Shown here: piece after piece, positions 26,282-64,000 of the stretch
Layout: every line of letters begins with the position of its first letter
Position numbering within the stretch: the stretch's first letter is position 1
The notes under the pieces: model-generated
Database searches by the model: none
Told to the model about the DNA's origin: nothing
The model's input: the letters and a program-made list of their open reading frames with translations, nothing else
Made by a program: the position numbers and the translations under genes
Source of the DNA: Quercus robur
Taxonomy: Eukaryota > Streptophyta > Magnoliopsida > Fagales > Fagaceae
DNA length: 64,000 bases
Assembly: GCF_932294415.1 (NCBI RefSeq)
Contig: NC_065542.1
Location: forward strand, 44,233,942-44,297,941
Direction: 5' to 3'

Positions 26282-27731
26282 CATGGTTTTAAAAACTGGT
26301 ACGGTCAAAGAACCGGAAAATGAGTTAATTACCGGTTTTATGGTCGGACGGGATCCGACCGATGGTTGAACCGGTGATGTCATAAATAATTTAATTAATA
26401 TTTATTTAATTTATTTAAATTATATAAATAATTAATAATTTTTTAATTTACTAAAAACATGATTAGGCTCATGACTAGCCCATCACAGAGAGTTCACTGC
26501 CACACACATTTACAACATTTATCAACAGGTCACTGAAAGCCCATCATAAAATCCTCCTCCAATTACAGGGAAAAACACTAAAACAGTCAAGTAAAACAAA
26601 TATCCAATGGGAAGTTAGCAACAGTGTTCCTTATTGTTAAATAACAGAACTCCCACCAGAACAGTCAAGCCTTTGAAAAGCAAATACACATATTCTATTC
26701 AATAAACTCAACAATTTATACAAAAAGGTGACTTGGCTTATCATTCTCCCAGCTTTGCTTCAAATCCACCCAAGTTACCATCCAACCCCAACCACAAAAA
26801 TGTAGGACATCCAAACAAACTCAGAGAGTGTGCCGATGCTGGTGCTGGTGCCGCTGTGCGTGATGCAGAGAGTGTAGAGAGTGAGGGCGAGGGTGGGGTT
26901 GGAAAAAAGAAAGAAAAAAACTCAGCTTGACCGATCTGAGGGAGAGTGTGCCGGTGTTGGTGCTGGTGCCGCTGTGCATGATGCAGAGAGTGCAGAGAGT
27001 GAGGGCGAGGGCGAGGTTGGAAAAAAGAAAAAAAAAACTCAGCTTGACCGATCTGAGGGAGAGTGTGTCGGTGCTGCTGTGCGTGAAGCAGAGAGTGCAA
27101 AGAGTGAGTGCGAGGACAAAGGCGGGGGCGGGGTTGGAAAAAAGAAGAAAAAAACCTCAACTTGACCGATCTGAGGGTGAGTGTGCCGATGTCGGTGTCG
27201 GTGCCGCTGTGCGTGAAGTAGAGAGTGAGAGTGAGGGCGAGGGCGAGCTTGGAAAAAAGAAAAAACCTCAGCTTGACTGATCTGAGGGAGAGTGTGCCGG
27301 TGCCCGTGCCGGTGCCGCTGTGCGTGACGTAGAGAGAGCTTGACTGCTTGAGCTTGACTGATTGTGAGATGAGAGAGTTGAGATTTAAGAGCTTGGATAG
27401 TGATTCGTGAGGCTGAGGCAGAGTGATTGTGAGTGAGATGAGAGAGTCTGAGGGTGAGGACTTTAGGCTTAGGGTTAGTTTTTAGGACTTTAGTGGAAAT
27501 TCTAAAGACCAAAACGATGTAGCTTTCCCAGAAAAGTTAAAAAAAATCCTAACTGGTCATTAACCGGTTCAACCTCCAGTTTTTTCGGTTCTCAGGTTGA
27601 ACCGGACGGATTTTACTGTTTGTCGGTTTTTAAATTATTTCCGGTTTTATATCATAACCGAACCGAATTAGAGACCGGTTCCTGGTTGAAACGGTTAGAC
27701 TGGCCGGTCTGGTTCGATTTTTAAAACTATG
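26282..27731. mobile_element. Non-autonomous hAT-type DNA transposon
   Basis: The ends are inverted: the left end reads CATGGTTTTAAAAA and the right end, reverse-complemented, reads CATAGTTTTAAAAA. They are flanked by an 8-bp direct repeat, GTCCTAAA at 26274-26281 and GTCTTAAA at 27732-27739 (one mismatch). Short CA-starting inverted repeats with 8-bp duplications are diagnostic of the hAT superfamily. Both subterminal regions are dense in CCGGTT/AACCGG motifs in both orientations, as expected for transposase-binding repeats. There is no transposase. The 1,450-bp interior is mainly a GC-rich tandem repeat. The imperfect duplication suggests moderate age. Confidence 0.82.
26820..27345 (+). repeat. 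118-bp GC-rich minisatellite inside the hAT element
   Basis: About five units start near 26,823, 26,941, 27,059, 27,178 and 27,289. Each has a GAGAGTGTGCCGGTG-like start, GCCGCTGTGCGTGA, a GAGGGCGAGG block, TTGGAAAAAAG and CTTGACCGATCTGAG. The last unit is shortened. Several overlapping ORFs cross the array on both strands only because the repeat lacks stops. They encode low-complexity charged or Ser/His-rich peptides and are not called as genes. Confidence 0.85.
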
Positions 27732-29783: not shown

Positions 29784-32483
29784 ATGGCAACCCTGCATTC
29801 TCTTGCTTTGACCTCTCCAGTCTCACACCATTTGCTGCAGCCACGCTCTTCCTCAGGTACTCTTCTTCTTTCTCTCTTCAGAAATTTGTAACATTTTCTT
29901 TCTTGCTAGTTCATGTCAACTGAAAAGTAAGTGATCCTCACTTTTCAGCAAGTGGGTTTTATCAATGCTGGATTGTATGTTACTTCTCTACTTAAAATTT
30001 TGCTTTTTTATGCTATTTTCCTCATTTTTGTTGGAGGGATGGTGGAAGCCATAGGTGAAAGGATATTTATATGTGAAATGGGTATATGGGTTTACTTGAA
30101 ATTGTTCAAGAATTTGGTAGTATATAATTGTAGAAGAATGTAATATGGAAAATTAATGGTTTATGTAACATGGGTGGGTCCTTATGATTTTGAAAACTGT
30201 TTATTAATAAATGTTACTGGTTATTGGTAAATAGGAAGATGGTTGAACATCAATTTGAGTATGGCACTCAATTATTATAGTGAAATTGTGAATTTCTGGA
30301 ACATTTTAGATTGGTAGATTAGTGAATTCTGTTTCTGTGAAAAACAGTTACCAATTCTAAAGACCAAATCAGGAAGAAGGAACAATAATAATGGTGGATA
30401 TGACGTGGGATATATAATTGTTGTTGTTCTCTCCTTCTCATTCTTCTCCTTCTGTGAGAGGAAGTAAGGACTTCCACTATTCCTACATAAGACTTCTTTC
30501 TTTGACAAAATTTTTCTCATAGGCTTGGTAGAGGGTTCCGGATTCCTGAAACTACATTAGACAAAGGGAGTAATATGAAATTTCAAATGGGAAAATATCC
30601 AAATGAATTTATGATGCTAGATTGCTAGTACAATTTGAAAATAAGATGGTACTTTCTTTCTCCTTTTTTTTGGTGAATTATACCAACCTCCCTTACGGTT
30701 TATTGAAACGACACTCCCCCCCCCCCACACACACACAAAAACTTTTCATGAAATGACACTCTCCCCCTTGAGGTTTATTATATAAATGAAACAATTATTT
30801 TTTCATTACTAGAATATTCTCTATTTTTTTTAAATAAAAAAAATCCTATTAATTTATACATACCTAATAGAGGGGATGTTATTCATCCACAAACCTCAAG
30901 AAAGGGATTGTTGTTTTGTCCATAATTTTGGTAAGGATTTTTTTTTAAATGACATAACTTGGTAAGAATATATATATATATATATATATATATTAAATGG
31001 AACATTTTGTGAGTGAAACCACAATTTGAAAGGGCATGGACTTATTTGTTGCATTTATGAAAACCACAAAAGGGGAATGGGGGTTGTCATTTGTATGAAT
31101 GTTTGGGGGAAGTATATTTCAATAAACTCAAGGGAGGGTAATGTAATTTTACCATTTTTTAGTGGGGAGGGGGGGTGTGGTGGAGAGTATGGAAATTATA
31201 TTAAAGAGGAGTAGAAAGGACAATATTCGTTCTCCAAAATTAACGGTAGCATTTTGCAATGCCGAACAGTCGGAATTTAGTTCTCATACTCTCCCTTCTT
31301 TCCAAGACAAATCTTCCAAATGAAATGTAGAAAGGACAATATGCGTTCTCCAAAATTAACGGTAGCATTTTGCAATGCCAAACAGTTGGAATTTAGTTCT
31401 CATACTTTCCCTTCTTTCCAAGACAAATTGAAAAAAATGAAATATCATTTCATTTGGAAGATTTTTGCATTTAACAGGCTTGCAAATTTCATGGTAATAT
31501 TTGTTCTAAAGATTTTTGGTGTTTTGTATTTGTCTTAGTATACATGGAATGCACACATCACATAATTGTCTGGCTCTATATGTTGAGGTATCTATGTAAA
31601 AATACTTTGTAATGAACTTAACATTAAAATAACTATTACATGCAAAAGAAGAATGGACCTCTCTCATGGTAAGGACAAAATCCAAGGAACAAAGTTAGGA
31701 CTAGGACATAAAAGTTTCAAGGGGATTTAGGACCCTTCTATCAAACATTTTCAATATATGTAATTGATTGTGTCACGGTAATATGGTTGATCAGCCTTAT
31801 TGGGGAGCATCATTTACACCCAAATTTCATGTTTAACAATGAGCATTATCGTAATATCTCTTTGCCAGATCACTCTTTGGGCACAAATGCTGAGTAGGTT
31901 ATGACAATGTTTCAATTGAGAGATTCAGAGATGTCCTTAAAATGCTAGCATATATGAAATAATAGAGATGGCTATCCATGAATGATAAATTCCATACATG
32001 TTTGTTCTATTTTTAGGCATAGTATCTTGGGCTGCTGTCCATAGAAGTGCAAAGTCATTATTCAATGGCCTACCTCTTCACTTGCCTCGTCTGAGGGTAG
32101 CTCCGCTAAGACAGAACTCCCATGGATCCATTATAATGATGGTCAAACCAGCAATTCAGTTCATCCAAGGAACTGATGAACAGACAGTACCAGATGTGAG
32201 GCTAACCAAGTCCAGAGATGGCACAAATGGTATGGCTATCTTCAGGTTTGATCAGCCCTCAGTTTTTGATTCATCCGGTGAAGTTGGTGATATCACTGGT
32301 TTTTACATGATTGATGAGGAAGGGGTTCTTCAGTCAGTTGATGTAAATGCCAAATTTGTCAACGGAAAGCCTGCAGGAATTGAAGCTAAGTATGTGATGC
32401 GGACTCCTCGAGATTGGGACAGATTCATGAGATTCATGGAGAGATACTCCAATGCGAATGGCTTGCAATTCATAAAAAAATGA
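29784..32483 (+). CDS. PSB28: Photosystem II Psb28 protein, chloroplast precursor, 2 exons
   Basis: Exon 1 is 29784-29856 and exon 2 is 32017-32483, joined across a GT-AG intron of 2,160 bp in phase 1. Together they give 179 codons plus stop. Residues 1 to about 65 are a Ser/Leu/Arg-rich, acid-poor stretch typical of a chloroplast transit peptide. The mature part holds the family-defining [20 protein letters not shown], then [20 protein letters not shown] and [19 protein letters not shown]. Psb28 binds photosystem II assembly intermediates lacking CP43 and helps biogenesis in the thylakoid. It is not part of the finished complex. The length matches the family (about 180 in Arabidopsis). The reading is clean, so the gene looks intact. 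The intron contains a MITE-like element and a tandem duplication. Confidence 0.95.
30673..31155. mobile_element. MITE-like inverted-repeat element in the PSB28 intron
   Basis: The left arm (TACCAACCTCCCTTACGGTTT, then ATTGAA and a C-run) is matched by the right arm in reverse complement (TACCCTCCCTTGAGTTTATTG, then AAA and a C-run). The arms are imperfect, at roughly 45 bp. The interior has no coding capacity and includes a C-run followed by an AC run (30,715-30,737). It fits an old non-autonomous TIR element. The superfamily is not determined. Confidence 0.55.
31211..31432 (+). repeat. 116-bp tandem duplication in the PSB28 intron
   Basis: Two adjacent copies, starting at 31211 and 31327, share GTAGAAAGGACAATAT and GGTAGCATTTTGCAATGCC. 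They differ at only a few bases until the end of the second copy, so the duplication is fairly recent. Confidence 0.85.
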
Positions 32484-43205: not shown

Positions 43206-46200
43206 AAGGGTTTACAATGGGCACGAGCTATTTCATTTTTACTTCTTTATTTTTAATTTTTAATTTTATTTATTATTTATTTTTAAGCTTCAATATTTAT
43301 AGGTCAATGATGGAAAACCCCAACTCATGACTTCACCCTTGAACAATACCCATTTTATCTTTAGTAGGTTAGACTATAGGACTGGGCCTAATTCTCTTTT
43401 AATGAGCTACCCATGAGCTTTTTTAATGGGCTTTTGATGACCTTATAAATTAAATAAAAAATTTATAAAAATAATTTTATCATTTTATCATTTGTCTATC
43501 ATTTGCAATTCTCAATCCATGTGTATTTGAGTATCAAATAATTTAATCTTAAAACAATGAAATAACTTGTTACATAAATTTCGCAACTAATGTTAATTGT
43601 TATCTTCAAAAGTGGTGGACTGTTCAGTATCCTTTGTATTTTATACTTATATTTGTATAAATACAATTAACTAAAAATATAAAATTATTATTCTATAAAT
43701 ATTACTATAAGAAAGAGAAAAAATAATGAGGGATAATATAAGTTTAGAGACCTTGGGAATTGAGTTTGAATTTGAGAGAGTTCTCTCCAATTAGCCAAAT
43801 ATGCGACACGTTCATTTAATTTTTTAAATATCACATGTCTTACATCTAAATAAAACTTAAAGAGAATTGGAGGATTCAATGAGAGGGGATCTTGTCCCAA
43901 TTTGTTAAACAATAATTTTCAAAAAGTTTGATATGTCTTGGTATTAGACCATGACTTAAATTAGAGGTCATATTTTAGGGGTACATATGTGTAAAATGGC
44001 AAGCTACATAATATTTTGTTAAACATTTTGTGAATTCTGTAGGCTTACTCAGTATTTAATTATCAATGGTCATTAAAATTATTTTGTATATGATCCATAG
44101 TTTATTAATGAATATTAATAAATAAATAAATAAAATTGAGAATTAGAACAAAATAGCATAACTAATTTAATTGTATTTGGTTTAGAGAATATTATATTGG
44201 TTTCTCATTCGACTAGTAAGAGTTTAATTCTTAATAACAAAGAATTGTCACATCATTTAAAAGGTTGTCATGTCATTGCTTCATTAGTAATGTAGACATG
44301 AAGATTAATAGTAGTTAAAAGGAAATATAACACTTATTTTTGAAATGAAAAATTCTTAGTTTACATTGTATTAATAATGTAGACTTATATTATAGACACA
44401 CAAAATGTGTATAATATTGTACACATCAATATAAATATAAATATTTATATATATATATATATATATATATAAAAGCAGAGATCCTATGCGAGAGAGTATA
44501 AGGTTCTGCCTTGTGGCGCATTCTATGAAAAGAATTGAGATACCCTTAAGTCATATTAAAGATAAGAACAAATTTAAAAGTAGAAACTCTTTATTTCCTT
44601 TGGCTCAAATGTTTCAAGACTAATTTTTGTTACATTTTGTATTCAATGTTTTAAGACTACTATTTATTTCATTTCATTCAATGTTTCAAGACCTTCCATC
44701 TCTCACACACACAAAAAACTCTTTGCATTTCCATTCATCATTTTTACTTTTACTTTTTTTTATACACATGTCCATAGCCTTTCATATCATCCTATCTCAA
44801 ATACACTTAGAAAAAAATGATGTCAATTTAGTTTCAACCTTTCAATGACACCTACATAACTCCAACATTACAGTATCATTTGATTATAACCCGTATGAGT
44901 AGGCTATAAACAAGAAAAGGAGCTTGGGTTTTTTATTCAATGACGGTAGCTTACGGTTTTGATGTTGAAGTTAGACATTGTAGATTTTGTGAAGGTTATG
45001 ATTCGCTTGGAGTATTTGGGTGTTTGAGATTTTGGTTTGAGAAAATTATAAATGTATTTTATTTTAGAACTAAAGAAAAAAAACATTCTAATTGATTATT
45101 TATGAAGTTTTTTTTTTTTTTTTTAATAATAAATTTTGTGTTAGAATTCATAATTTGTAGATTTCTTTGTATGTAGCCATAGTGGTAAAAACAAAAATCG
45201 ATGGTGACTTAAAATTATTTTTCACTTTTTTTTAAAGGACACAAAAGCCCAACTAAAGCCAATTGAATTTTGATAAATGAATGTGTTTTTAGTAAATTTC
45301 TCTTTGTTTAATCACGTTCTCTTTATGTTGACACTTACAAATGATTGCCTTAATTCCATTGAGATAATTAATTGGGTGTTTATGATCAAGGTCTCCATAT
45401 TTGGTTGTGAGAATAAAGTGATTGAGAAAGTGTTTGGTAGGTTGCTTAAATCTATGTAATTTTAGGATATAAAAGTATTTTATATTTTGAATTCTTATTT
45501 GTTGATTTCAAAATCATTTAATCAGTTTGAAAAATAAAATATACTTTTAATGGTAAATATTATAATATATTATAATCTTACAATGTTAAACAATTTTTTT
45601 AAAATAAATTATGAATTAAAAAAAAATCAAGTTTCAAAGTATTTAACAATATTGCGGACAAACATAAATATTATACAACAAAATAAGTATTAAGTATTAT
45701 ATGTAGATTTTAATATATATAAAAATGATTTCAAATGAAATTGTAAAGTAGTTTGCGCATCACGTGGGATATCATTTAGTTTGCAAACAACATTACAACC
45801 AACATGATAGAATAGCCACTCTACACTAAATCACTAATCTCCAAAGATGCTTTCTTCAAGAAAACTTTCCAGTCCTCTCAATGATGTCCAAAGACAAATA
45901 GACTAGACATGAATTTAGAAGCATTGTACACATTTTGTGTGCCTGCGATGTAAGTTTATATTGCAAATATAATACCTATAAAGTCCTTTTAAAATTTCAA
46001 ATGGATACTATAAAGCCCTTCTTAAATTTCAAATGGGCGAAAGCGCCTATTTCGCAAACTTTAGAGAACAATAGGTTTTTTTTTTTTTTTTTTGAGAATC
46101 ACTTTTGAGACAAAGTTGGTAGTTTAGCACAAAGTCACTACACTATCTCCAAAGATGTCTTCTACAAGGAAATTTTCTAGTCCTTTCAATAATGTCCAAA

Positions 46201-46754
46201 AACAAACAGATTAAACCTGAATTTTAAAACATTGTATACATTTTGTGTGTCTATAATGTAAGTTTACATTTCTAATATAATGTAAACTTATAAAAGTTTT
46301 CAAATGGACTCTATAAAAACCCTTTTTAAATTTCATATGGACGAAAGCGCACATTTCACAAACTTTAGAGAACAATAGGTTTTGTTTTTTTGTTTTTGTT
46401 TTTGAGAATCACTTTTGAGACAAAGTTGGTAGTTTAGCGCAAAGTCATTACACTATCTCCAAAGATGCCTTCTTCAAGGAAATTTTCTAGTCCTTTCAAT
46501 AACGTCCAAAAACAAACAGATTATACCTGAACTTAGAAACGTTGTATACATTTTGTGTGTCTACAATGTAAGTTTACGTTGTTAAAATAATGTAAACCAA
46601 TAAAAATTTTCAAATGGACTCTATAAAAGCCCTTTTTAAATTTCAAATGGACGAAAGCGCACATTTCACAAACTTTAGAGAACAATAGGTTTTGTTTTTG
46701 TTTTTGAGAATCACTTTTGAGACAAAGTTGGTAGTTTAGCACAAAGTCACTACA

Positions 46755-49210
46755 CTATCTCCAAAGATGTCTTCTACAAGGAAATTTTCTAGTCCTTTCA
46801 ATAATGTCCAAAAACAAACAGATTAAACCTGAATTTTAAAACATTGTATACATTTTGTGTGTCTATAATGTAAGTTTACATTTCTAATATAATGTAAACT
46901 TATAAAAGTTTTCAAATGGACTCTATAAAAACCCTTTTTAAATTTCATATGGACGAAAGCGCACATTTCACAAACTTTAGAGAACAATAGGTTTTGTTTT
47001 TTTGTTTTTGTTTTTGAGAATCACTTTTGAGACAAAGTTGGTAGTTTAGCGCAAAGTCATTACACTATCTCCAAAGATGCCTTCTTCAAGGAAATTTTCT
47101 AGTCCTTTCAATAACGTCCAAAAACAAACAGATTATACCTGAACTTAGAAACGTTGTATACATTTTGTGTGTCTACAATGTAAGTTTACGTTGTTAAAAT
47201 AATGTAAACCAATAAAAATTTTCAAATGGACTCTATAAAAGCCCTTTTTAAATTTCAAATGGACAAAAGCGCACATTTCACAAACTTTAGAGAACAATAT
47301 TTTTTGTTTTTGTTTTTGAGAATCACTTTTGAGACAAAGTTGGTAGTTTAGCACAAAGTCACTACACTATCTCCAAAGATGTCTTCTACAAGGAAATTTT
47401 CTAGTCCTTTCAATAATGTCCAAAAACAAACAGATTAAACCTGAATTTTAAAACATTGTATACATTTTGTGTGTCTATAATGTAAGTTTACATTTCTAAT
47501 ATAATGTAAACTTATAAAAGTTTTCAAATGGACTCTATAAAAACCCTTTTTAAATTTCATATGGACGAAAGCGCACATTTCACAAACTTTAGAGAACAAT
47601 AGGTTTTGTTTTTTTGTTTTTGTTTTTGAGAATCACTTTTGAGACAAAGTTGGTAGTTTAGCGCAAAGTCATTACACTATCTCCAAAGATGCCTTCTTCA
47701 AGGAAATTTTCTAGTCCTTTCAATAACGTCCAAAAACAAACAGATTATACCTGAACTTAGAAACGTTGTATACATTTTGTGTGTCTACAATGTAAGTTTA
47801 CGTTGTTAAAATAATGTAAACCAATAAAAATTTTCAAATGGACTCTATAAAAGCCCTTTTTAAATTTCAAATGGACGAAAGCGCACATTTCACAAACTTT
47901 AGAGAACAATAGGTTTTGTTTTTGTTTTTGAGAATCACTTTTGAGACAAAGTTGGTAGTTTAGCACAAAGTCACTACACTATCTCCAAAGATGTCTTCTA
48001 CAAGGAAATTTTCTAGTCCTTTCAATAATGTCCAAAAACAAACAGATTAAACCTGAATTTTAAAACATTGTATACATTTTGTGTGTCTATAATGTAAGTT
48101 TACATTTCTAATATAATGTAAACTTATAAAAGTTTTCAAATGGACTCTATAAAAACCCTTTTTAAATTTCATATGGACGAAAGCGCACATTTCACAAACT
48201 TTAGAGAACAATAGGTTTTGTTTTTTTGTTTTTGTTTTTGAGAATCACTTTTGAGACAAAGTTGGTAGTTTAGCGCAAAGTCATTACACTATCTCCAAAG
48301 ATGCCTTCTTCAAGGAAATTTTCTAGTCCTTTCAATAACGTCCAAAAACAAACAGATTATACCTGAACTTAGAAACGTTGTATACATTTTGTGTGTCTAC
48401 AATGTAAGTTTACGTTGTTAAAATAATGTAAACCAATAAAAATTTTCAAATGGACTCTATAAAAGCCCTTTTTAAATTTCAAATGGACGAAAGCGCACAT
48501 CTCACAAACTTTAGAGAACAATAGGTTTTGTTTTTGTTTTTGAGAATCACTTTTGAGACAAAGTTGGTAGTTTAGCACAAAGTCACTACACTATCTCCAA
48601 AGATGTCTTCTACAAGGAAATTTTCTAGTCCTTTCAATAATGTCCAAAAACAAACAGATTAAACCTGAATTTTAAAACATTGTATACATTTTGTTTGTTT
48701 ATAATGTAAGTTTACATTTCTAATATAATGTAAACTTATAAAAGTTGTCAAATGGACTCTATAAAAGCCCTTTTTAAATTTCATATGGACGAAAGCGCAC
48801 ATTTCACAAATTTTAGAGAACAATAGGTTTTGTTTTTTTGTTTTTGTTTTTGAGAATCACTTTTGAGACAAAGTTGGTAGTTTAGCGCAAAGTCATTACA
48901 CTATCTCCAAAGATGCCTTCTTCAAGGAAATTTTTTAGTCCTTTCAATAACGTCCAAAAACAAACAGATTATACCTGAACTTAGAAACGTTGTATACATT
49001 TTGTGTGTCTACAATGTAAGTTTACGTTGTTAAAATAATGTAAACCAATAAAAATTTTCAAATTGACTCTATAAAAGCCCTTTTTAAATTTCAAATGGAC
49101 GAAAGCGCACATCTCACAAACTTTAGAGAACAATAGGTTTTGTTTCTTTGTTTTTGTTTCTGAGAATCACTTTTGAGACAAAGTTGGTAGTTTAGCACAA
49201 AGTCACTACA
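46755..49210 (+). repeat. Four-dimer block of the satellite, source-like copy
   Basis: Four successive dimers carry a diagnostic order of variants. The first B monomer has AACAATATTTTTTG in place of AACAATAGGTTTTG. Two plain dimers follow, the second with ACATCTCAC. The fourth dimer has AAAGTTGTCAA, TTTTTTAGTCC, CAAATTGACTC and GTTTCTTTG. The same order recurs in the next block. Confidence 0.75.
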
Positions 49211-52200
49211 CTATCTCCAAAGATGTCTTCTACAAGGAAATTTTCTAGTCCTTTCAATAATGTCCAAAAACAAACAGATTAAACCTGAATTTTAAAACAT
49301 TGTATACATTTTGTGTGTCTATAATGTAAGTTTACATTTCTAATATAATGTAAACTTATAAAAGTTTTCAAATGGACTCTATAAAAACCCTTTTTAAATT
49401 TCATATGGACGAAAGCGCACATTTCACAAACTTTAGAGAACAATAGGTTTTGTTTTTTTGTTTTTGTTTTTGAGAATCACTTTTGAGACAAAGTTGGTAG
49501 TTTAGCGCAAAGTCATTACACTATCTCCAAAGATGCCTTCTTCAAGGAAATTTTCTAGTCCTTTCAATAACGTCCAAAAACAAACAGATTATACCTGAAC
49601 TTAGAAACGTTGTATACATTTTGTGTGTCTACAATGTAAGTTTACGTTGTTAAAATAATGTAAACCAATAAAAATTTTCAAATGGACTCTATAAAAGCCC
49701 TTTTTAAATTTCAAATGGACGAAAGCGCACATTTCACAAACTTTAGAGAACAATATTTTTTGTTTTTGTTTTTGAGAATCACTTTTGAGACAAAGTTGGT
49801 AGTTTAGCACAAAGTCACTACACTATCTCCAAAGATGTCTTCTACAAGGAAATTTTCTAGTCCTTTCAATAATGTCCAAAAACAAACAGATTAAACCTGA
49901 ATTTTAAAACATTGTATACATTTTGTGTGTCTATAATGTAAGTTTACATTTCTAATATAATGTAAACTTATAAAAGTTTTCAAATGGACTCTATAAAAAC
50001 CCTTTTTAAATTTCATATGGACGAAAGCGCACATTTCACAAACTTTAGAGAACAATAGGTTTTGTTTTTTTGTTTTTGTTTTTGAGAATCACTTTTGAGA
50101 CAAAGTTGGTAGTTTAGCGCAAAGTCATTACACTATCTCCAAAGATGCCTTCTTCAAGGAAATTTTCTAGTCCTTTCAATAACGTCCAAAAACAAACAGA
50201 TTATACCTGAACTTAGAAACGTTGTATACATTTTGTGTGTCTACAATGTAAGTTTACGTTGTTAAAATAATGTAAACCAATAAAAATTTTCAAATGGACT
50301 CTATAAAAGCCCTTTTTAAATTTCAAATGGACGAAAGCGCACATTTCACAAACTTTAGAGAACAATAGGTTTTGTTTTTGTTTTTGAGAATCACTTTTGA
50401 GACAAAGTTGGTAGTTTAGCACAAAGTCACTACACTATCTCCAAAGATGTCTTCTACAAGGAAATTTTCTAGTCCTTTCAATAATGTCCAAAAACAAACA
50501 GATTAAACCTGAATTTTAAAACATTGTATACATTTTGTGTGTCTATAATGTAAGTTTACATTTCTAATATAATGTAAACTTATAAAAGTTTTCAAATGGA
50601 CTCTATAAAAACCCTTTTTAAATTTCATATGGACGAAAGCGCACATTTCACAAACTTTAGAGAACAATAGGTTTTGTTTTTTTGTTTTTGTTTTTGAGAA
50701 TCACTTTTGAGACAAAGTTGGTAGTTTAGCGCAAAGTCATTACACTATCTCCAAAGATGCCTTCTTCAAGGAAATTTTCTAGTCCTTTCAATAACGTCCA
50801 AAAACAAACAGATTATACCTGAACTTAGAAACGTTGTATACATTTTGTGTGTCTACAATGTAAGTTTACGTTGTTAAAATAATGTAAACCAATAAAAATT
50901 TTCAAATGGACTCTATAAAAGCCCTTTTTAAATTTCAAATGGACGAAAGCGCACATCTCACAAACTTTAGAGAACAATAGGTTTTGTTTTTGTTTTTGAG
51001 AATCACTTTTGAGACAAAGTTGGTAGTTTAGCACAAAGTCACTACACTATCTCCAAAGATGTCTTCTACAAGGAAATTTTCTAGTCCTTTCAATAATGTC
51101 CAAAAAACAAACAGATTAAACCTGAATTTTAAAACATTGTATACATTTTGTGTGTCTATAATGTAAGTTTACATTTCTAATATAATGTAAACTTATAAAA
51201 GTTTTCAAATGGACTCTATAAAAACCCTTTTTAAATTTCATATGGACGAAAGCGCACATTTCACAAACTTTAGAGAACAATAGGTTTTGTTTTTTTGTTT
51301 TTGTTTTTGAGAATCACTTTTGAGACAAAGTTGGTAGTTTAGCGCAAAGTCATTACACTATCTCCAAAGATGCCTTCTTCAAGGAAATTTTCTAGTCCTT
51401 TCAATAACGTCCAAAAACAAACAGATTATACCTGAACTTAGAAACGTTGTATACATTTTGTGTGTCTACAATGTAAGTTTACGTTGTTAAAATAATGTAA
51501 ACCAATAAAAATTTTCAAATGGACTCTATAAAAGCCCTTTTTAAATTTCAAATGGACGAAAGCGCACATCTCACAAACTTTAGAGAACAATAGGTTTTGT
51601 TTTTGTTTTTGAGAATCACTTTTGAGACAAAGTTGGTAGTTTAGCACAAAGTCACTACACTATCTCCAAAGATGTCTTCTACAAGGAAATTTTCTAGTCC
51701 TTTCAATAATGTCCAAAAACAAACAGATTAAACCTGAATTTTAAAACATTGTATACATTTTGTGTGTCTATAATGTAAGTTTACATTTCTAATATAATGT
51801 AAACTTATAAAAGTTGTCAAATGGACTCTATAAAAGCCCTTTTTAAATTTCATATGGACGAAAGCGCACATTTCACAAATTTTAGAGAACAATAGGTTTT
51901 GTTTTTTTGTTTTTGTTTTTGAGAATCACTTTTGAGACAAAGTTGGTAGTTTAGCGCAAAGTCATTACACTATCTCCAAAGATGCCTTCTTCAAGGAAAT
52001 TTTTTAGTCCTTTCAATAACGTCCAAAAACAAACAGATTATACCTGAACTTAGAAACGTTGTATACATTTTGTGTGTCTACAATGTAAGTTTACGTTGTT
52101 AAAATAATGTAAACCAATAAAAATTTTCAAATTGACTCTATAAAAGCCCTTTTTAAATTTCAAATGGACGAAAGCGCACATCTCACAAACTTTAGAGAAC

Positions 52201-52279
52201 AATAGGTTTTGTTTCTTTGTTTTTGTTTCTGAGAATCACTTTTGAGACAAAGTTGGTAGTTTAGCACAAAGTCACTACA
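49211..52279 (+). repeat. Five-dimer block repeating the variant order of the preceding block
   Basis: The AATATTTTTTG variant recurs in the first dimer (near 49,752), then plain dimers, then the AAAGTTGTCAA/TTTTTTAGTCC/CAAATTGACTC/GTTTCTTTG dimer (near 51,825-52,230). The block has one extra ACATCTCAC-type dimer. This points to a single multi-dimer duplication followed by, or including, a one-dimer gain. Confidence 0.75.
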
Positions 52280-53953
52280 CTATCTCCAAAGATGTCTTCT
52301 ACAAGGAAATTTTCTAGTCCTTTCAATAATGTCCAAAAACAAACAGATTAAACCTGAATTTTAAAACATTGTATACATTTTGTGTGTCTATAATGTAAGT
52401 TTACATTTCTAATATAATGTAAACTTATAAAAGTTGTCAAATGGACTCTATAAAAGCCCTTTTTTAATTTCATATCGACGAAAGCGCACATTTCACAAAC
52501 TTTAGAGAACAATAGGTTTTGTTTTTTTGTTTTTGTTTTTGAGAATCACTTTTGAGACAAAGTTGGTAGTTTAGCGCAAAGTCATTACACTATCTCCAAA
52601 GATGCCTTCTTCAAGGAAATTTTCTAGTCCTTTCAATAACGTCCAAAAACAAACTGATTATACCTGAACTTAGAAACGTTGTATACATTTTGTGTGTCTA
52701 CAATGTAAGTTTACGTTGTTAAAATAATGTAAACCAATAAAAATTTTCAAATGGACTCTATAAAAGCCCTTTTTAAATTTCAAATGGACGAAAGCGCACA
52801 TCTCACAAACTTTAGAGAACAATAGGTTTTGTTTTTTTGTTTTTGTTTTTGAGAATCACTTTTGAGACAAAGTTGGTAGTTTAGCACAAAGTCACTACAC
52901 TATCTCCAAAGATGTCTTCTACAAGGAAATTTTCTAGTCCTTTCAATAATGTCAAAAAACAAACAGATTAAACCTGAATTTTAAAACATTGTATACATTT
53001 TGTGTGTCTATAATTTAAGTTTACATTTCTAATATAATGTAAACTTATAAAAGTTGTGAAATGGACTCTATAAAAGCCCTTTTTAAATTTCATATGGACG
53101 AAAGCGCACATTTCACAAATTTTAGAGAACAATAGGTTTTGTTTTTTTGTTTTTGTTTTTGAGAATCACTTTTGAGACAAAGTTGGTAGTTTAGCGCAAA
53201 GTCACTGCACTATCTCCAAAGATGTCTTCTTCAAGAAAATTTTCTAGTGCTTTCAATAATGTCCAAAAACAAATAGATTAAACCTGAATTTTAAAATATT
53301 GTATACATTTTGTGTGTCTATTATGTAAGTTTACATTAAGTTTACTTTGCTAATGTAATGTAAACTTATAAAAGTTGTCAAATGGACTCTATAAAAACCC
53401 TTTTTAAATTTCAAATGGGTGAAAGCCCCCATTTCACAAACTTTAGAAAACAATAGGTTTTGTTTTTTTGTTTTTATTTTTTGAGAATCACTTTTGAGAT
53501 GAAATTGGTAGTCTAGTGCAAAGCCACTCTACACTAATCTCCAAAGAAGCCTTCATCAACGAAATTTCCCAGTCCTCTCAACGATGTCCAAGACAAACAG
53601 ACTAGACAGGAACGCAGAAATCATGCGATAAGAACACTTTAAATCTTTGTTTTTTTTAATTTGATAATTAAGAATACTTTATATCTGATAGTTGTAAACA
53701 GCACCTTCAAAGGCAAACAAGACGTTGAAACCAAAGCTGATTGATGAAAAACTACAGCACCACGTAACTTGGGAAGACAAGAACAAACTTAAAAAATAAA
53801 AGAACCTCACTTTCTGAGAGTAAAGAATAATAATTTATTAGTTATTTGGTTTCAACTTTCAAGTTTTAGCTTCAACGCATAGATATCTTATTCTTATATA
53901 TTATTCTTCAAATCCTGCAAGGAATCTTAAAGCTTCCAAGTACCAAGATACTC

Positions 53954-54224
53954 ATGAAGATACCTACCAGCAGAAATGCTTTTTCTCTTTTCCTTTTCTT
54001 CATTATTCTTTCCGAAACTAATTTCTTGGCCAAGACACAAAACACGACAATCCCAGTTAATGTGGGTGTCATTCTTAACGATGATACATGGAATGGGAAG
54101 ATGGGTTTCAGTTGCATCAACATGTCCCTTGAAGACTTCTATGCCTCCAATAGTCACTACAGAACCAGGGTAGTTCTTAACTCAAGGGACTCCAAAAGTG
54201 ATGTTGTTGGAGCAGTTGCTGCAG
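53954..54224 (+). CDS. Glutamate receptor-like (GLR clade 2 type) first exon, partial
   Basis: The start codon opens a signal peptide (about residues 1-29, FSLFLFFIILSETNFLAKTQ). The start of the amino-terminal ligand-binding region follows: VNVGVILNDDTWNGKMGFSC, INMSLEDFYASN and TRVVLNSRDSKSDVVGAVAA. The exon ends at a donor (GCAG/GTTATC) in phase 1 at 54224. Plant GLRs are plasma-membrane, amino-acid-gated cation channels of about 900 residues. This exon holds only the first 90. I saw no matching second exon (the expected LDLIKN-type start) between 54,225 and 58,022. The gene is therefore either a fragment or has its first intron enlarged past the window edge by the LTR retrotransposon. The exon itself shows no break. 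Confidence 0.8.
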
Positions 54225-54721
54225 GTTATCTCTCTCTCTCTCTCTCTCTACCTTATTCTTCTTTGCTGTGAATTCATTCCAGACTGTAGTTAAGTCTCGT
54301 GGTAGATGATAAGTCTCGTTTTCTATTTCTTTATTCTATCATTCACTCTCCAATATTTTCCTCTTAGCCCTTCGAAATTGTAGCTATGGGCCGGGATTAT
54401 CGGATTAAGTGATTAACAATACTATAAAAATCTGATTTTGAGCTCAATAAAATAAGTAGCGGATTAATGAATTTATTGTGATCGAATCATTGATTAAGTG
54501 TGCGTTTGATACCAACTTATTTAGCATTTTGTTAAAAATTTGTTAAAATATATTTGTGTTTTGAAAAGGTGAAAAAAATTATAGTTTTAAAAAACTATAC
54601 ATAATTGCTAAAAACTAAAAACTAACAAAATAAGTTGGACAAATAGACACTAAGCTATGAGTTAAGGACTTTGCATGACTTAAAAACTCAGAATTTTCAA
54701 GGCATATACCATTCATTAAAT
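54225..54721. other. GLR first intron start or spacer
   Basis: A CT microsatellite directly follows the donor (54,229-54,250). The rest is AT-rich with no coding signal. Confidence 0.5.
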
Positions 54722-55063
54722 TTAGGCCAAAATACCATATTGTTTCCTAAAGTTTACTTCGTAAGCGATTTTCATCCCTCAAGTTTCAAATAATGGTCCC
54801 TGAATTTTAAAAAATGAGGGCTATTAATACTTTCATTGATTTCTGTTAGTTTTTTTTTTTTGAGAAGGAACTTCTGTTAGTTTCTTTGCCTATGTATCTA
54901 ATGGAGCAATGATGTGGCAAAATTTTTGTTAAAAAATATTGGGGAAAAAAAACTTTCCCCTTTTATGTTTGGGATAGTTTTCAATTCTCCTCCTTATCTT
55001 TGAAACCAACCAATTTTCCCCCATTATGTTTTGGAAATGGGCAAATACCCCAAATCTGTTACA

Positions 55064-55106
<43 letters not shown>

Positions 55107-55604
55107 CCCAGTTAAATCCAATGAAACCTTTAAAAAGTTGAGAATTGCATTATTATTTTTTTGGATTGCATTTGTAATCATTTTGATTCCATTAGATTTA
55201 ATTATAAAAGTATAGGATTGAGGGAATTTGCTCATTTTCCAAACATAAATGAGGAAATTAGTTGGTTTCAAAGATAAGAGGGAGAATTGTGAACTACCCC
55301 AAATATAAAGGGGGAAAAAAAAACTTTTTCCCCAACAAAATTACACATGTGATCTAGACCCAAACCCATTTCTTTTTTCCAAATTCAAACCCAAATCTAG
55401 AAAACATTCATACTTTCCCAAATTTAAACCCATACCCGTTTGAGAGAGAGACCATTGTTCTTCTCCAAAATGAACATTTTGTTTACTTATTTTTTAAAAA
55501 ATGGTTAATTGATAGTGCTCATTTGAAACTTAAGGAAAATTAACACCCATTAAATAAACTTTAACTAGCTAAACTTTATTAATTAATAGTGTATTTTGGC
55601 CTAA
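54722..55604. mobile_element. MITE-like TIR element carrying a nested inverted-repeat element
   Basis: The left end TTAGGCCAAAATAC (54722-54735) is exactly inverted at the right end (55591-55604). Subterminal CTAAAGTTTA and AAACTTTA segments continue the symmetry imperfectly. No coding capacity. It is interrupted by another inverted-repeat element (54,939-55,335). Target duplication and superfamily not determined. Confidence 0.65.
54939..55335. mobile_element. Nested MITE with about 120-bp inverted arms
   Basis: The left arm starts TTGGGGAAAAAAA and continues with TTATCTTTGAAACCAACCAA. The right arm, reverse-complemented, starts TTGGGGAAAAAG and continues with TTATCTTTGAAACCAACTAA. The arms match over about 120 bp. 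The two arms therefore encode similar short peptides starting MKPTNF on opposite strands, which are not genes. A long T-run (about 55,067-55,106) lies between them. Confidence 0.72.
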
Positions 55605-61720: not shown

Positions 61721-62371
61721 CTTTAGGATCTTTTCCTTTTACTTATTGTTATTTTTTCCTTTTCTTTGTATATAATTTTCCTTTGTTATGGCAGTTTTCC
61801 ATGTTTGAGATGTAACTCCTTTCTTAATCAATGAAAAGACATAGACTTTTGCTTTTGTGGGACTTTGTTTTTCTTGCAATATTTGTCTTTGGTTGGCTGT
61901 AGTTATTTTTTTGCTCCTTGCTGAGGCTTTAGATTAATGTTGCTTCTAAGGGTGAATACCCATACTTTAACAAAAGCTAATAGTAATGAATTTTTGCTAA
62001 GTCAAATGAATTAAACCCGTGTAAATAGTGAAAAGGATGACCATCACCTTGACTAAGATATATTCTGACCCCTTAAGTTAATAGTTAGTCATGCAATTAA
62101 CAGTCCAACTATTGTCTTTCATGTGATTAGCAGTGTGGTTGGACAGCTTTACCTTATTCAGGGCATTTGGCACCTAGTAACTCAACTTTAAGAAACAAAC
62201 TCTGTGTACCCCAGGTAAATAGTTCAAAGGATGAAGGGTACTTTTGGATTTACTCCTTAACCTCAAATGATAATGAAGCTCATGCCTATTCAAGGTACAT
62301 AATCCAGGAAGGCCCTTATACTTATAATTTCACTTAGCACTTCATTCCATAGGGGGCTTGTATAAGTACAA

Positions 62372-63015
62372 GTGTTAATTTACCCAAGGTATGTGGTCCG
62401 AGGAGTCAGGCATGACCAATGTTCTGTTTAACACTTAAACAAATAATGGAGAGTATTAATTTACCCAAGGCATGTGGTTTGAGGAACCAGTCATAACCAA
62501 GGTTCTGTTTAACATTTAAATAAATAATGGGAAGTATTAATTTACCCAAGGTATATGGTCCAAAGGGCCAGACATGACCAAGATTTTGTTTAATACTTAG
62601 AGAAATTATGGGAAGTATTAATTTACCTAAGGTATGTGGTCCAAGGAGCAAGGTATGACCAAATTTCTGTTTAATACTTAGAGAAATAATGGGAAGTATT
62701 AATTTAACCAAGGTATGTGGTTCAAGGGGCCCAGGCATAACCAAGATTCTGTTTAATACTGAGAGAAATAATGGGAAGTTTTAATTTACCCAAGGTATGT
62801 GGTTCGAGGAGCCAGGCATGACTAAGATTTTGTTTAATATCCACTTTAAGTAACTAGGAATATTAATTTACCCAAGGTATGTGATCTGAGGAGCCAGACA
62901 TGTCCAAGGTTCTATTTAATATTCCTACAGGTAATCAAGAATATTAATTTACCCGAGATATGTGGTCCGAGGAGCCAGACATAACCAAGGTTTCATTTAA
63001 TATTCATACAGGTAA
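62372..63015 (+). repeat. About 80-bp tandem repeat, 8 copies, inside the retrotransposon
   Basis: GTATTAATTTACCCAAGGTA and TGTGGTCCGAGG-like starts recur near 62,372, 62,453, 62,536, 62,615, 62,695, 62,778, 62,859 and 62,941. Each is followed by CAGGCATGACCAAGGTTCTG-like and TTTAATA parts. Such arrays are frequent in the pol-to-3'LTR spacer of Tat/Ogre elements. Confidence 0.85.
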
Positions 63016-63066: not shown

Positions 63067-64000
63067 CTAATAATAGTACCTTCGCAGGTTATTTACATTC
63101 CAAGGTCGCGGTACAACTTTTTCGTCCAAATCTTCTAGGAAGTACACACCTATGCTTGTCACCAAGGTGTATGACCCTTCCCAATTGGGCCCTAACTTCC
63201 CCCATGCTGGGTTTTTTGCAGTATCCACAACCTTTCTTAGTACCAAGTCCCCAGGGGCCAATGGCCTTAACTTTACACTTGAATCATACCCCTGTTTGAG
63301 CTTCTGCTGATAGTATGCTAATTGAACTATGGCACTTTCTCTCCGCTCCTCGACTAGATCTAGGCTCTTTTCTAGTAGGTGGTCGTTGTTGTCTGGAGCG
63401 AATAAGCTAGTCCTCAGCGTTGGGAATCCAGTCTCTAGAGGAGTCACAGCCTCGGCCCCGTAAGTCATTGAAAAGGGTGTCTCCCCCGTCGACCTACGAG
63501 GGGTAACCTGATATGTCCAGAGGACATGTAGAAGCTTATCCACCCATTTGGCCTTTGCATCATCCAATCTCTTTTTAAGTCCATTCACTATGACCTTATT
63601 GATAGCCTTGGCTTGCCCGTTCTCCTAGGGATAAGCTGGAGTGGAATATCTATTTATAATACTAATTCATAACAGTATCTTCTGAAAGCTTTGCTATCAA
63701 ATTGAAGTTTGTTGTTTAAGATGAGGGTGTGAGGAATCCCAAACCCAGTGACAATGTTCTTCCACACAAACCTTTTGGCATCCACGTCCCTAATGTTCGC
63801 CAGCAACTCAGCTTCAATCCACTCAGTAAAGTAATCAATGCCGACCAAAAGCCATTGCTTATTTCCTGCTACTTTGGGGAAAGGCCCTAAAATGTCCAAG
63901 CCCCACTGAGCAAAAGGCTAGGGACTAGATAGAGGATTAAGAATGCCCCCTGGCTGGTGAATGTTGGAAGCGAATCTCTAACATTGGTAACACTTCTTCA
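63067..64000 (-). other. Integrase region of the Ty3/gypsy element
   Basis: The core part shows MDILGPFPKVAGNKQWLLVG followed by DYFTEWIEAE, the usual gypsy integrase signature. The C-terminal part shows RRSTGETPFSMTYGAEAV, LAPGDLVLRKV and LGPNWEGSY (GPY-like motif). This identifies Ty3/gypsy. The region appears broken and continues past the window edge. Confidence 0.85.

What the first reader, a model, noticed from the sequence alone, without database searches (positions are those of the whole stretch)
45814..53620. Three-level hierarchical satellite in what looks like a gene-bearing region
Monomers of about 306 bp alternate as A and B types to form 612-bp dimers. Variant bases show that a four-dimer block (46,755-49,210) and the following five-dimer block (49,211-52,279) carry the same order of private variants. 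The minus-strand 69-codon ORF repeats this: its KQKQK variant occurs only in the first dimer of each block, and the ORF is lost in the last dimer of each block. Higher-order structure of this kind is usually described for centromeric satellites. Here it lies between ordinary genes.
Basis: seen in the sequence. Interest (0 to 1): 0.72.

Follow-up and report, generated by a model that had tools for sequence, protein, structure and literature searches.

The report
Young single-locus satellite beside glutamate-receptor gene
Just in front of a plant glutamate-receptor-like gene, a roughly 300-base unit that carries one end of a small transposon has been copied head to tail about 25 times, first as pairs and then as a block of pairs; this looks like ordinary recent unequal exchange at one place in the genome and not like a centromere.

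Summary
The array is real: 25 full monomers plus a partial one (45,832 to about 53,610), alternating A and B. The 4-dimer and 5-dimer blocks share private variants in the same order (3 substitutions in 2,456 bp, extra dimer set aside). The third level is one two-copy duplication, not a repeating period.

Searches of the plant's own 786-Mb assembly indicate a private family. The two parts of the monomer outside a transposon-derived segment each match 29 times: 25 here, 4 in an inverted duplicate of the region 37 kb away. That duplicate has only 4 monomers plus a partial one. Monomer A is mosaic: left half like the right-edge type, right half like B, which points to unequal exchange. About 70 bp of each full monomer resembles one end of a dispersed MITE.

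The array ends about 340 bp before the start codon of a GLR gene whose later exons were found. The minus-strand ORF shows no coding pattern. Distribution argues against a centromeric satellite. A regulatory effect is possible but untested. An assembly error in the block duplication is not excluded, because no reads were available.

The parts
43776..55218 (+). Arm of an inverted segmental duplication; the other arm is C38:44323286-44328277, minus strand; the two arrays lie 37 kb apart
   Evidence: 141 substitutions in 3,553 aligned flank bases (4.0%), array excluded
44358..44421 (-). Separate end fragment of the same MITE family, present in both arms of the duplication
   Evidence: 86% over 64 bp; C38:44278299-44278362 and C38:44327632-44327695
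45832..46140 (+). Monomer 0, diverged left-edge copy; counterpart c2_0 in the inverted arm
   Evidence: (21 substitutions and 3 gaps from c2_0)
46141..46752 (+). Dimer 0 (A+B), identical to dimers 2 and 6
46225..46297 (+). MITE-end segment inside monomer A, positions about 85-157; recurs in the other full monomers
   Evidence: dispersed family
46753..49208 (+). Block 1, dimers 1-4
49209..52277 (+). Block 2, dimers 5-9; dimer 8 (51045-51657) equals dimer 7 but for a 1-base insertion
52278..52897 (+). Dimer 10, further from the inner dimers
52898..53207 (+). Monomer 23, last A-type copy (8 substitutions from m01)
53208..53531 (+). Monomer 24, diverged right-edge copy; counterpart c2_3 in the inverted arm
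   Evidence: 10 substitutions, 1 gap
53532..53610 (+). Partial monomer 25; by eye, similarity ends about where the MITE segment starts in full monomers
   Evidence: sequence printed
53954..54226 (+). Exon 1 of a glutamate-receptor-like (GLR) gene; later coding frames at C38:44305785-44311240
   Evidence: exon 1 alone had no Pfam match
46533..46742 (-). Example of the 69-codon ORF; judged non-coding

Best explanation
A private, single-locus satellite (a large minisatellite or VNTR) in the 5' region of a GLR gene, grown by repeated unequal exchange, with no function needed to explain its structure. Steps supported by sequence: (1) the unit contains one end of a MITE; (2) a short array with three monomer types (left edge, B, right edge) existed before the region was duplicated in inverted orientation; (3) in the window's arm, an exchange between a right-edge-type monomer and a B monomer made the hybrid A; (4) A and B then multiplied together as a dimer; (5) one recent duplication of four dimers, plus a gain or loss of one dimer, made the third level. 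Inferred: the direction of step 3, that the exchange was meiotic or sister-chromatid crossing-over and not replication slippage or gene conversion, and that the array is neutral.
For: The two monomer parts outside the MITE segment each gave 29 matches in the own genome, 25 in the window and 4 in the inverted arm (29 of 29 candidates scored in each). The inverted arm holds left-edge, B-like, B-like, right-edge and partial monomers in that order and no A. A is mosaic: left half 6/173 differences from c2_3 against 16/173 from B; right half 4/129 from B against 17/137 from c2_3. One breakpoint explains 23 of 24 informative substitutions, reached in 2 of 100,000 shuffles. Edge monomers are the most diverged and seven inner A copies are identical. 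The blocks differ by 3 in 2,456 (0.12%) while the flanks of the inverted arms differ by 4.0%, so the block duplication looks much the younger event. MITE: 9 distinct elements with both ends recognised among 30 distinct loci (28 elsewhere, 2 the local fragments of both arms), 6 of the 9 with flanking 9-mers matching at 8 or 9 positions, ends allowed to move by 3 bases; random end pairs in the same loci under the same rule reach 8 or more in 391 of 20,000 (2.0%).
Against: Direction of the mosaic is not proven: monomer 24 could be the hybrid, or the inverted arm could have lost A. The order statistics for the third level are modest (0.7% and 3.8%), because only 11 dimers exist. Copy number and block order rest on one assembly without reads. 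Monomer 0 differs from its counterpart more (21 substitutions, about 7%) than the flanks do (4.0%). Gene conversion could make the blocks look younger than they are. The genome search skips very common words, so strongly diverged copies elsewhere could be missed (notes). In 3 of the 9 MITE elements the flanking 9-mers matched at only 6 or 7 positions under the script; in one of these (L014) the outer ends, which the script had not paired, match at 9 of 9.
Confidence: 0.83

Rival explanations
1. Cis-regulatory tandem array: the repeats next to the GLR promoter act as an enhancer or as a target of RNA-directed DNA methylation, so copy number tunes the gene, in the manner of the maize b1 and pl1 repeats.
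For: The array ends about 340 bp before the GLR start codon. In maize, tandem repeats near genes act as enhancers and take part in paramutation, with copy number correlating with strength, and proximal P1-rr repeats promote transcription in reporter assays (PMC11166354, passages read). The inverted arm repeats promoter and exon 1 and could feed double-stranded RNA (inference).
Against: No methylation, small-RNA or expression data. CpG observed/expected is higher in the array (0.58) than in the 4-kb flanks (0.37 and 0.43), and 4 of 20 A/B substitutions are transitions at CpG, so there is no clear mark of long heavy methylation; a young array could hide it.
Confidence: 0.12
2. Assembly artefact for the third level only: the 4-dimer and 5-dimer blocks are the two haplotypes of one array, joined in series.
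For: The blocks differ by only 3 substitutions and one dimer, a size of difference that two alleles could show; the join would lie inside near-identical repeats.
Against: No direct evidence; a short array of the same family exists independently in the inverted arm, and a real unequal exchange between alleles gives the same sequence.
Confidence: 0.12
3. A centromeric or pericentromeric satellite lying among genes.
For: Alternating monomers and a nested block resemble centromeric higher-order repeats.
Against: Found at one locus and its inverted duplicate only; 7.8 kb long; genes around it.
Confidence: 0.02
4. A repeated protein-coding gene on the minus strand.
For: Frames of 50 to 69 codons recur in the A and B monomers.
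Against: The listed frames of 50 codons or more begin with GTG or TTG. A/B differences fall 5, 4, 5 on codon positions 1, 2, 3. The other seven pairs tested gave 1,2,2; 2,3,2; 8,4,5; 11,8,8; 12,5,12; 4,0,3; 9,2,5: none has most changes at position 3, though two (4,0,3 and 9,2,5) have few at position 2.
Confidence: 0.01

Closest known systems
Locus-specific VNTR or minisatellite arrays with higher-order structure (human 61-bp VNTR at Xp22.33; PMC2588610, passages read)
   Same: single locus, outside the centromere, nested repeat units
   Different: longer unit (about 306 bp), plant, MITE end inside the unit, inverted duplicate with a short array
Satellites that arise from DNA transposons or MITEs (review PMC12628747, passages read)
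   Same: transposon-end sequence inside the monomers
   Different: only about 70 of 310 bp is MITE-like; the rest had no match elsewhere in the genome
Maize b1 hepta-repeat and pl1 penta-repeat (PMC11166354, passages read)
   Same: tandem copies of a unit near a plant gene
   Different: b1 repeats lie about 100 kb 5' and the pl1 repeats about 14 kb 3' of their genes, with reported regulatory roles; here the array is promoter-proximal and untested
Centromeric higher-order satellites (recalled)
   Same: alternating monomer types, a larger repeated block, homogenised inner copies with diverged edges
   Different: one 7.8-kb locus among genes, third level present only twice

Membership tests
Locus-specific satellite or VNTR | Head-to-tail copies of one unit | tested here: met
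Locus-specific satellite or VNTR | Confined to one locus | tested here: met
   29 of 29 matches in each lie at this locus or its inverted duplicate; very diverged copies could be missed
Locus-specific satellite or VNTR | Copy number varies between individuals | not testable with these tools
   one assembly only; the two arms of the duplication differ (25 against 4 full monomers)
Centromeric satellite | Large arrays on many chromosomes | tested here: not met
Centromeric satellite | CENH3 binding | not testable with these tools
   no ChIP data
Higher-order repeat | A multi-monomer unit repeated as a whole | tested here: met
   dimer level; block level: two copies only
MITE with 9-bp target-site duplication (Mutator-like, recalled) | Terminal inverted repeats and target-site duplication in dispersed copies | tested here: met
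   6 of 9 elements match at 8 or 9 of 9 bases; null 391 of 20,000
MITE with 9-bp target-site duplication (Mutator-like, recalled) | Complete element within the monomer | tested here: not met
   only one end is present
Regulatory or paramutation-type tandem repeats | Repeats close to a gene | tested here: met
Regulatory or paramutation-type tandem repeats | Small RNAs, methylation and expression change with repeats | not testable with these tools
   no such data

The most novel reading that the evidence does not exclude
The array and its inverted short-array duplicate form a natural copy-number switch for the GLR gene: the promoter-side repeats expand and contract quickly by unequal exchange, the inverted arm supplies matching RNA, and the gene's silencing state follows array length, giving the plant a fast heritable source of variation in a signalling channel.
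Probability: 0.05. Interest if true: 0.65.

Novelty: new member of a known kind. Interest (0 to 1): 0.27.

Why it matters
It shows that three-level repeat hierarchy can arise at a single locus in gene space without a centromere, and it preserves the steps: a short array in one arm of an inverted duplication, a long one in the other, and a traceable mosaic monomer at the origin of the dimer. That makes it a small, relatively dated example of how higher-order repeats begin. Its place in front of a GLR gene makes a regulatory test cheap.

Tried and rejected
Centromere reading: rejected on the genome searches. Coding reading of the minus-strand ORF: rejected on codon positions. Methylation-decay signature: looked for and not found. 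Relatives in public collections: exact 27-base and 22-base monomer patterns gave 0 matches in viral contigs and 0 in genome contigs, as expected for a plant repeat; no collection of plant genomes other than the own assembly could be searched. Species: a search for papers with matching oak chromosome lengths gave 0 papers, and (8 of 44 papers listed, none opened) gave no match that I could confirm, so I do not name the species. That it is a plant rests on the gene set. A search for GLR, tandem repeat, promoter and Quercus together gave 0 papers; I make no wider claim that this locus is unreported. Whether other GLR genes lie beyond the DNA examined did not complete, nor was the search with monomer 0 (not repeated).

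Full report
Observation. The array spans 45,832 to about 53,610 and holds 25 full monomers and one partial monomer. A monomers are 310 bp (one is 311); B monomers are 302 bp, or 310 bp in three copies (m10, m20, m22). A and B differ by 20 substitutions and one 8-bp gap; seven A copies are identical. Block 1 (46,753-49,208) and block 2 (49,209-52,277) match dimer by dimer with 3 substitutions in 2,456 bp after the extra dimer of block 2 is removed. Private variants tie dimer 1 to dimer 5 and dimer 4 to dimer 9. Dimers 0, 2 and 6 are identical to each other, as are dimers 3 and 7, so those pairs are consistent but not specific. Two shuffles of dimer order gave 0.7% (1,357 of 200,000) and 3.8% (762 of 20,000). 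The first used types that I assigned after seeing the order, so it leans towards the observation. The third level is real in the assembly but is one duplication, seen once.

Genome context. The window lies at C38:44,233,942-44,297,941 of a 786-Mb assembly in 42 contigs. A dimer query gave 61 match rows (40 of 101 candidates scored): 13 in the window's array, 3 in an inverted locus 37 kb downstream, and 45 that cover only a segment of about 70 bp; 2 of these 45 are the local fragments beside the two arrays, the rest lie elsewhere. The monomer parts on either side of that segment gave 29 matches each, with 29 of 29 candidates scored: 25 in the window and 4 in the inverted locus. The satellite is therefore private to this region at the sensitivity of that search, which skips very common words.

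The inverted duplicate. Window 43,776-45,800 and 53,621-55,218 match C38:44,323,286-44,328,277 on the minus strand with 141 substitutions in 3,553 aligned bases. The duplicate has exon 1 of the GLR gene (95.6% identical protein), but no further exons on its strand were found within the DNA examined (window and L009-L013). Its array has four full monomers and a partial one: a left-edge copy, two B-like copies and a right-edge copy, with no A. The pairs m24/c2_3 and B/c2_2 differ by about 3%, near the flanks' 4%, so these monomer types probably predate the inverted duplication. The pair m00/c2_0 differs more, by about 7%.

Origin of the dimer. A is a mosaic. Its left part (up to about position 156) follows the right-edge type and its right part (from about position 201) follows B: 23 of 24 informative substitutions fit one breakpoint, reached in 2 of 100,000 shuffles. 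Informative here means that m02 and c2_2 agree with each other, m24 and c2_3 agree with each other, the two pairs differ, and A matches one of them without a gap. Per-half differences are 6/173 from c2_3 on the left and 4/129 from B on the right, against 16/173 (left, from B) and 17/137 (right, from c2_3) for the opposite pairing. An out-of-register exchange in an array like that of the duplicate would make such a hybrid next to a B monomer, that is, a dimer. The reverse reading, in which the right-edge monomer is the hybrid, is not excluded.

The MITE segment. The segment of about 70 bp is one end of a dispersed element of roughly 110-280 bp with imperfect terminal inverted repeats. Among 30 distinct loci examined (34 loci, 4 of them fetched twice; 28 elsewhere and 2 the local fragments), 9 had both ends recognised by the script, and 6 of these 9 had flanking 9-mers matching at 8 or 9 positions, with the ends allowed to move by up to 3 bases. 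Random end pairs in the same loci under the same rule reached 8 or more in 391 of 20,000. The other three scored 6, 7 and 7; one of them (L014) has a 9-of-9 match at its outer ends, which I found by eye. A 9-bp duplication suggests a Mutator-like family; that link is recalled and comes from no call. A separate fragment of the family lies at 44,358-44,421 and in the other arm. By eye, partial monomer 25 loses similarity about where the MITE segment begins in full monomers (sequences printed); I have no firm explanation for this.

The neighbouring gene. Exon 1 begins at 53,954, about 340 bp after the array. Later coding frames lie at C38:44,305,785-44,311,240. They match ANF_receptor and Lig_chan in Pfam, and the first of them matches glutamate receptor 3.4 best among solved structures (places). 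Exon 1 alone had no Pfam match; its assignment rests on position, frame and resemblance to GLR N-termini (by eye). Intron 1 is about 17.6 kb and holds a frame with a reverse-transcriptase match (RVT_1). Expression of the gene was not tested, and I did not build a full gene model.

Function. Nothing in the sequence requires one. The minus-strand ORF shows no coding pattern: A/B differences fall 5, 4 and 5 on codon positions 1, 2 and 3, and none of the seven other pairs tested has most changes at position 3, although two have few at position 2 (4,0,3 and 9,2,5). CpG is not depleted relative to the flanks. The regulatory reading rests on position and on analogy with the maize repeats (PMC11166354, passages read).

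Comparison with known kinds. Higher-order structure outside centromeres is in print (PMC2588610, passages read), and satellites formed from transposon ends are reviewed in PMC12628747 (passages read). Other papers were seen only as listings. Within 60 kb of the array, an 81-bp tandem repeat at three retroelement-like places also shows a 162- or 163-bp dimer period; the retroelement label there is by eye, and one neighbouring frame had no Pfam match. The finding is a new member of a known kind, with an unusually readable history.

Noticed in passing
window 62370-63004; L011:1864-2690; L013:2333-3315: An 81-bp tandem repeat at three retroelement-like places, with about 8, 10 and 12 copies; a 162- or 163-bp dimer period scores slightly higher. 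The window's neighbouring frame at 63067-63624 looks integrase-like by eye but had no Pfam match.
   Followed up: partly
C38:44323286-44328277 (L011, L012): Inverted partial duplicate of the GLR promoter and exon 1, tail to tail with the gene, without further exons on its strand in the DNA examined.
   Followed up: yes
window 26824-27336: A second tandem array, 118-bp unit with 4.4 copies, with open frames of over 100 codons on both strands.
   Followed up: no
window 31211-31428: Near-perfect repeat of a 116-bp unit, 1.9 copies (96%), about 560 bp before the Psb28 frame at 31989.
   Followed up: no
L013:8643-9214: Two-copy 286-bp tandem repeat at 93%.
   Followed up: no
window 53590-53620: By eye, the right end of the array coincides with the start of the MITE segment in full monomers; the reason is not known.
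   Followed up: partly
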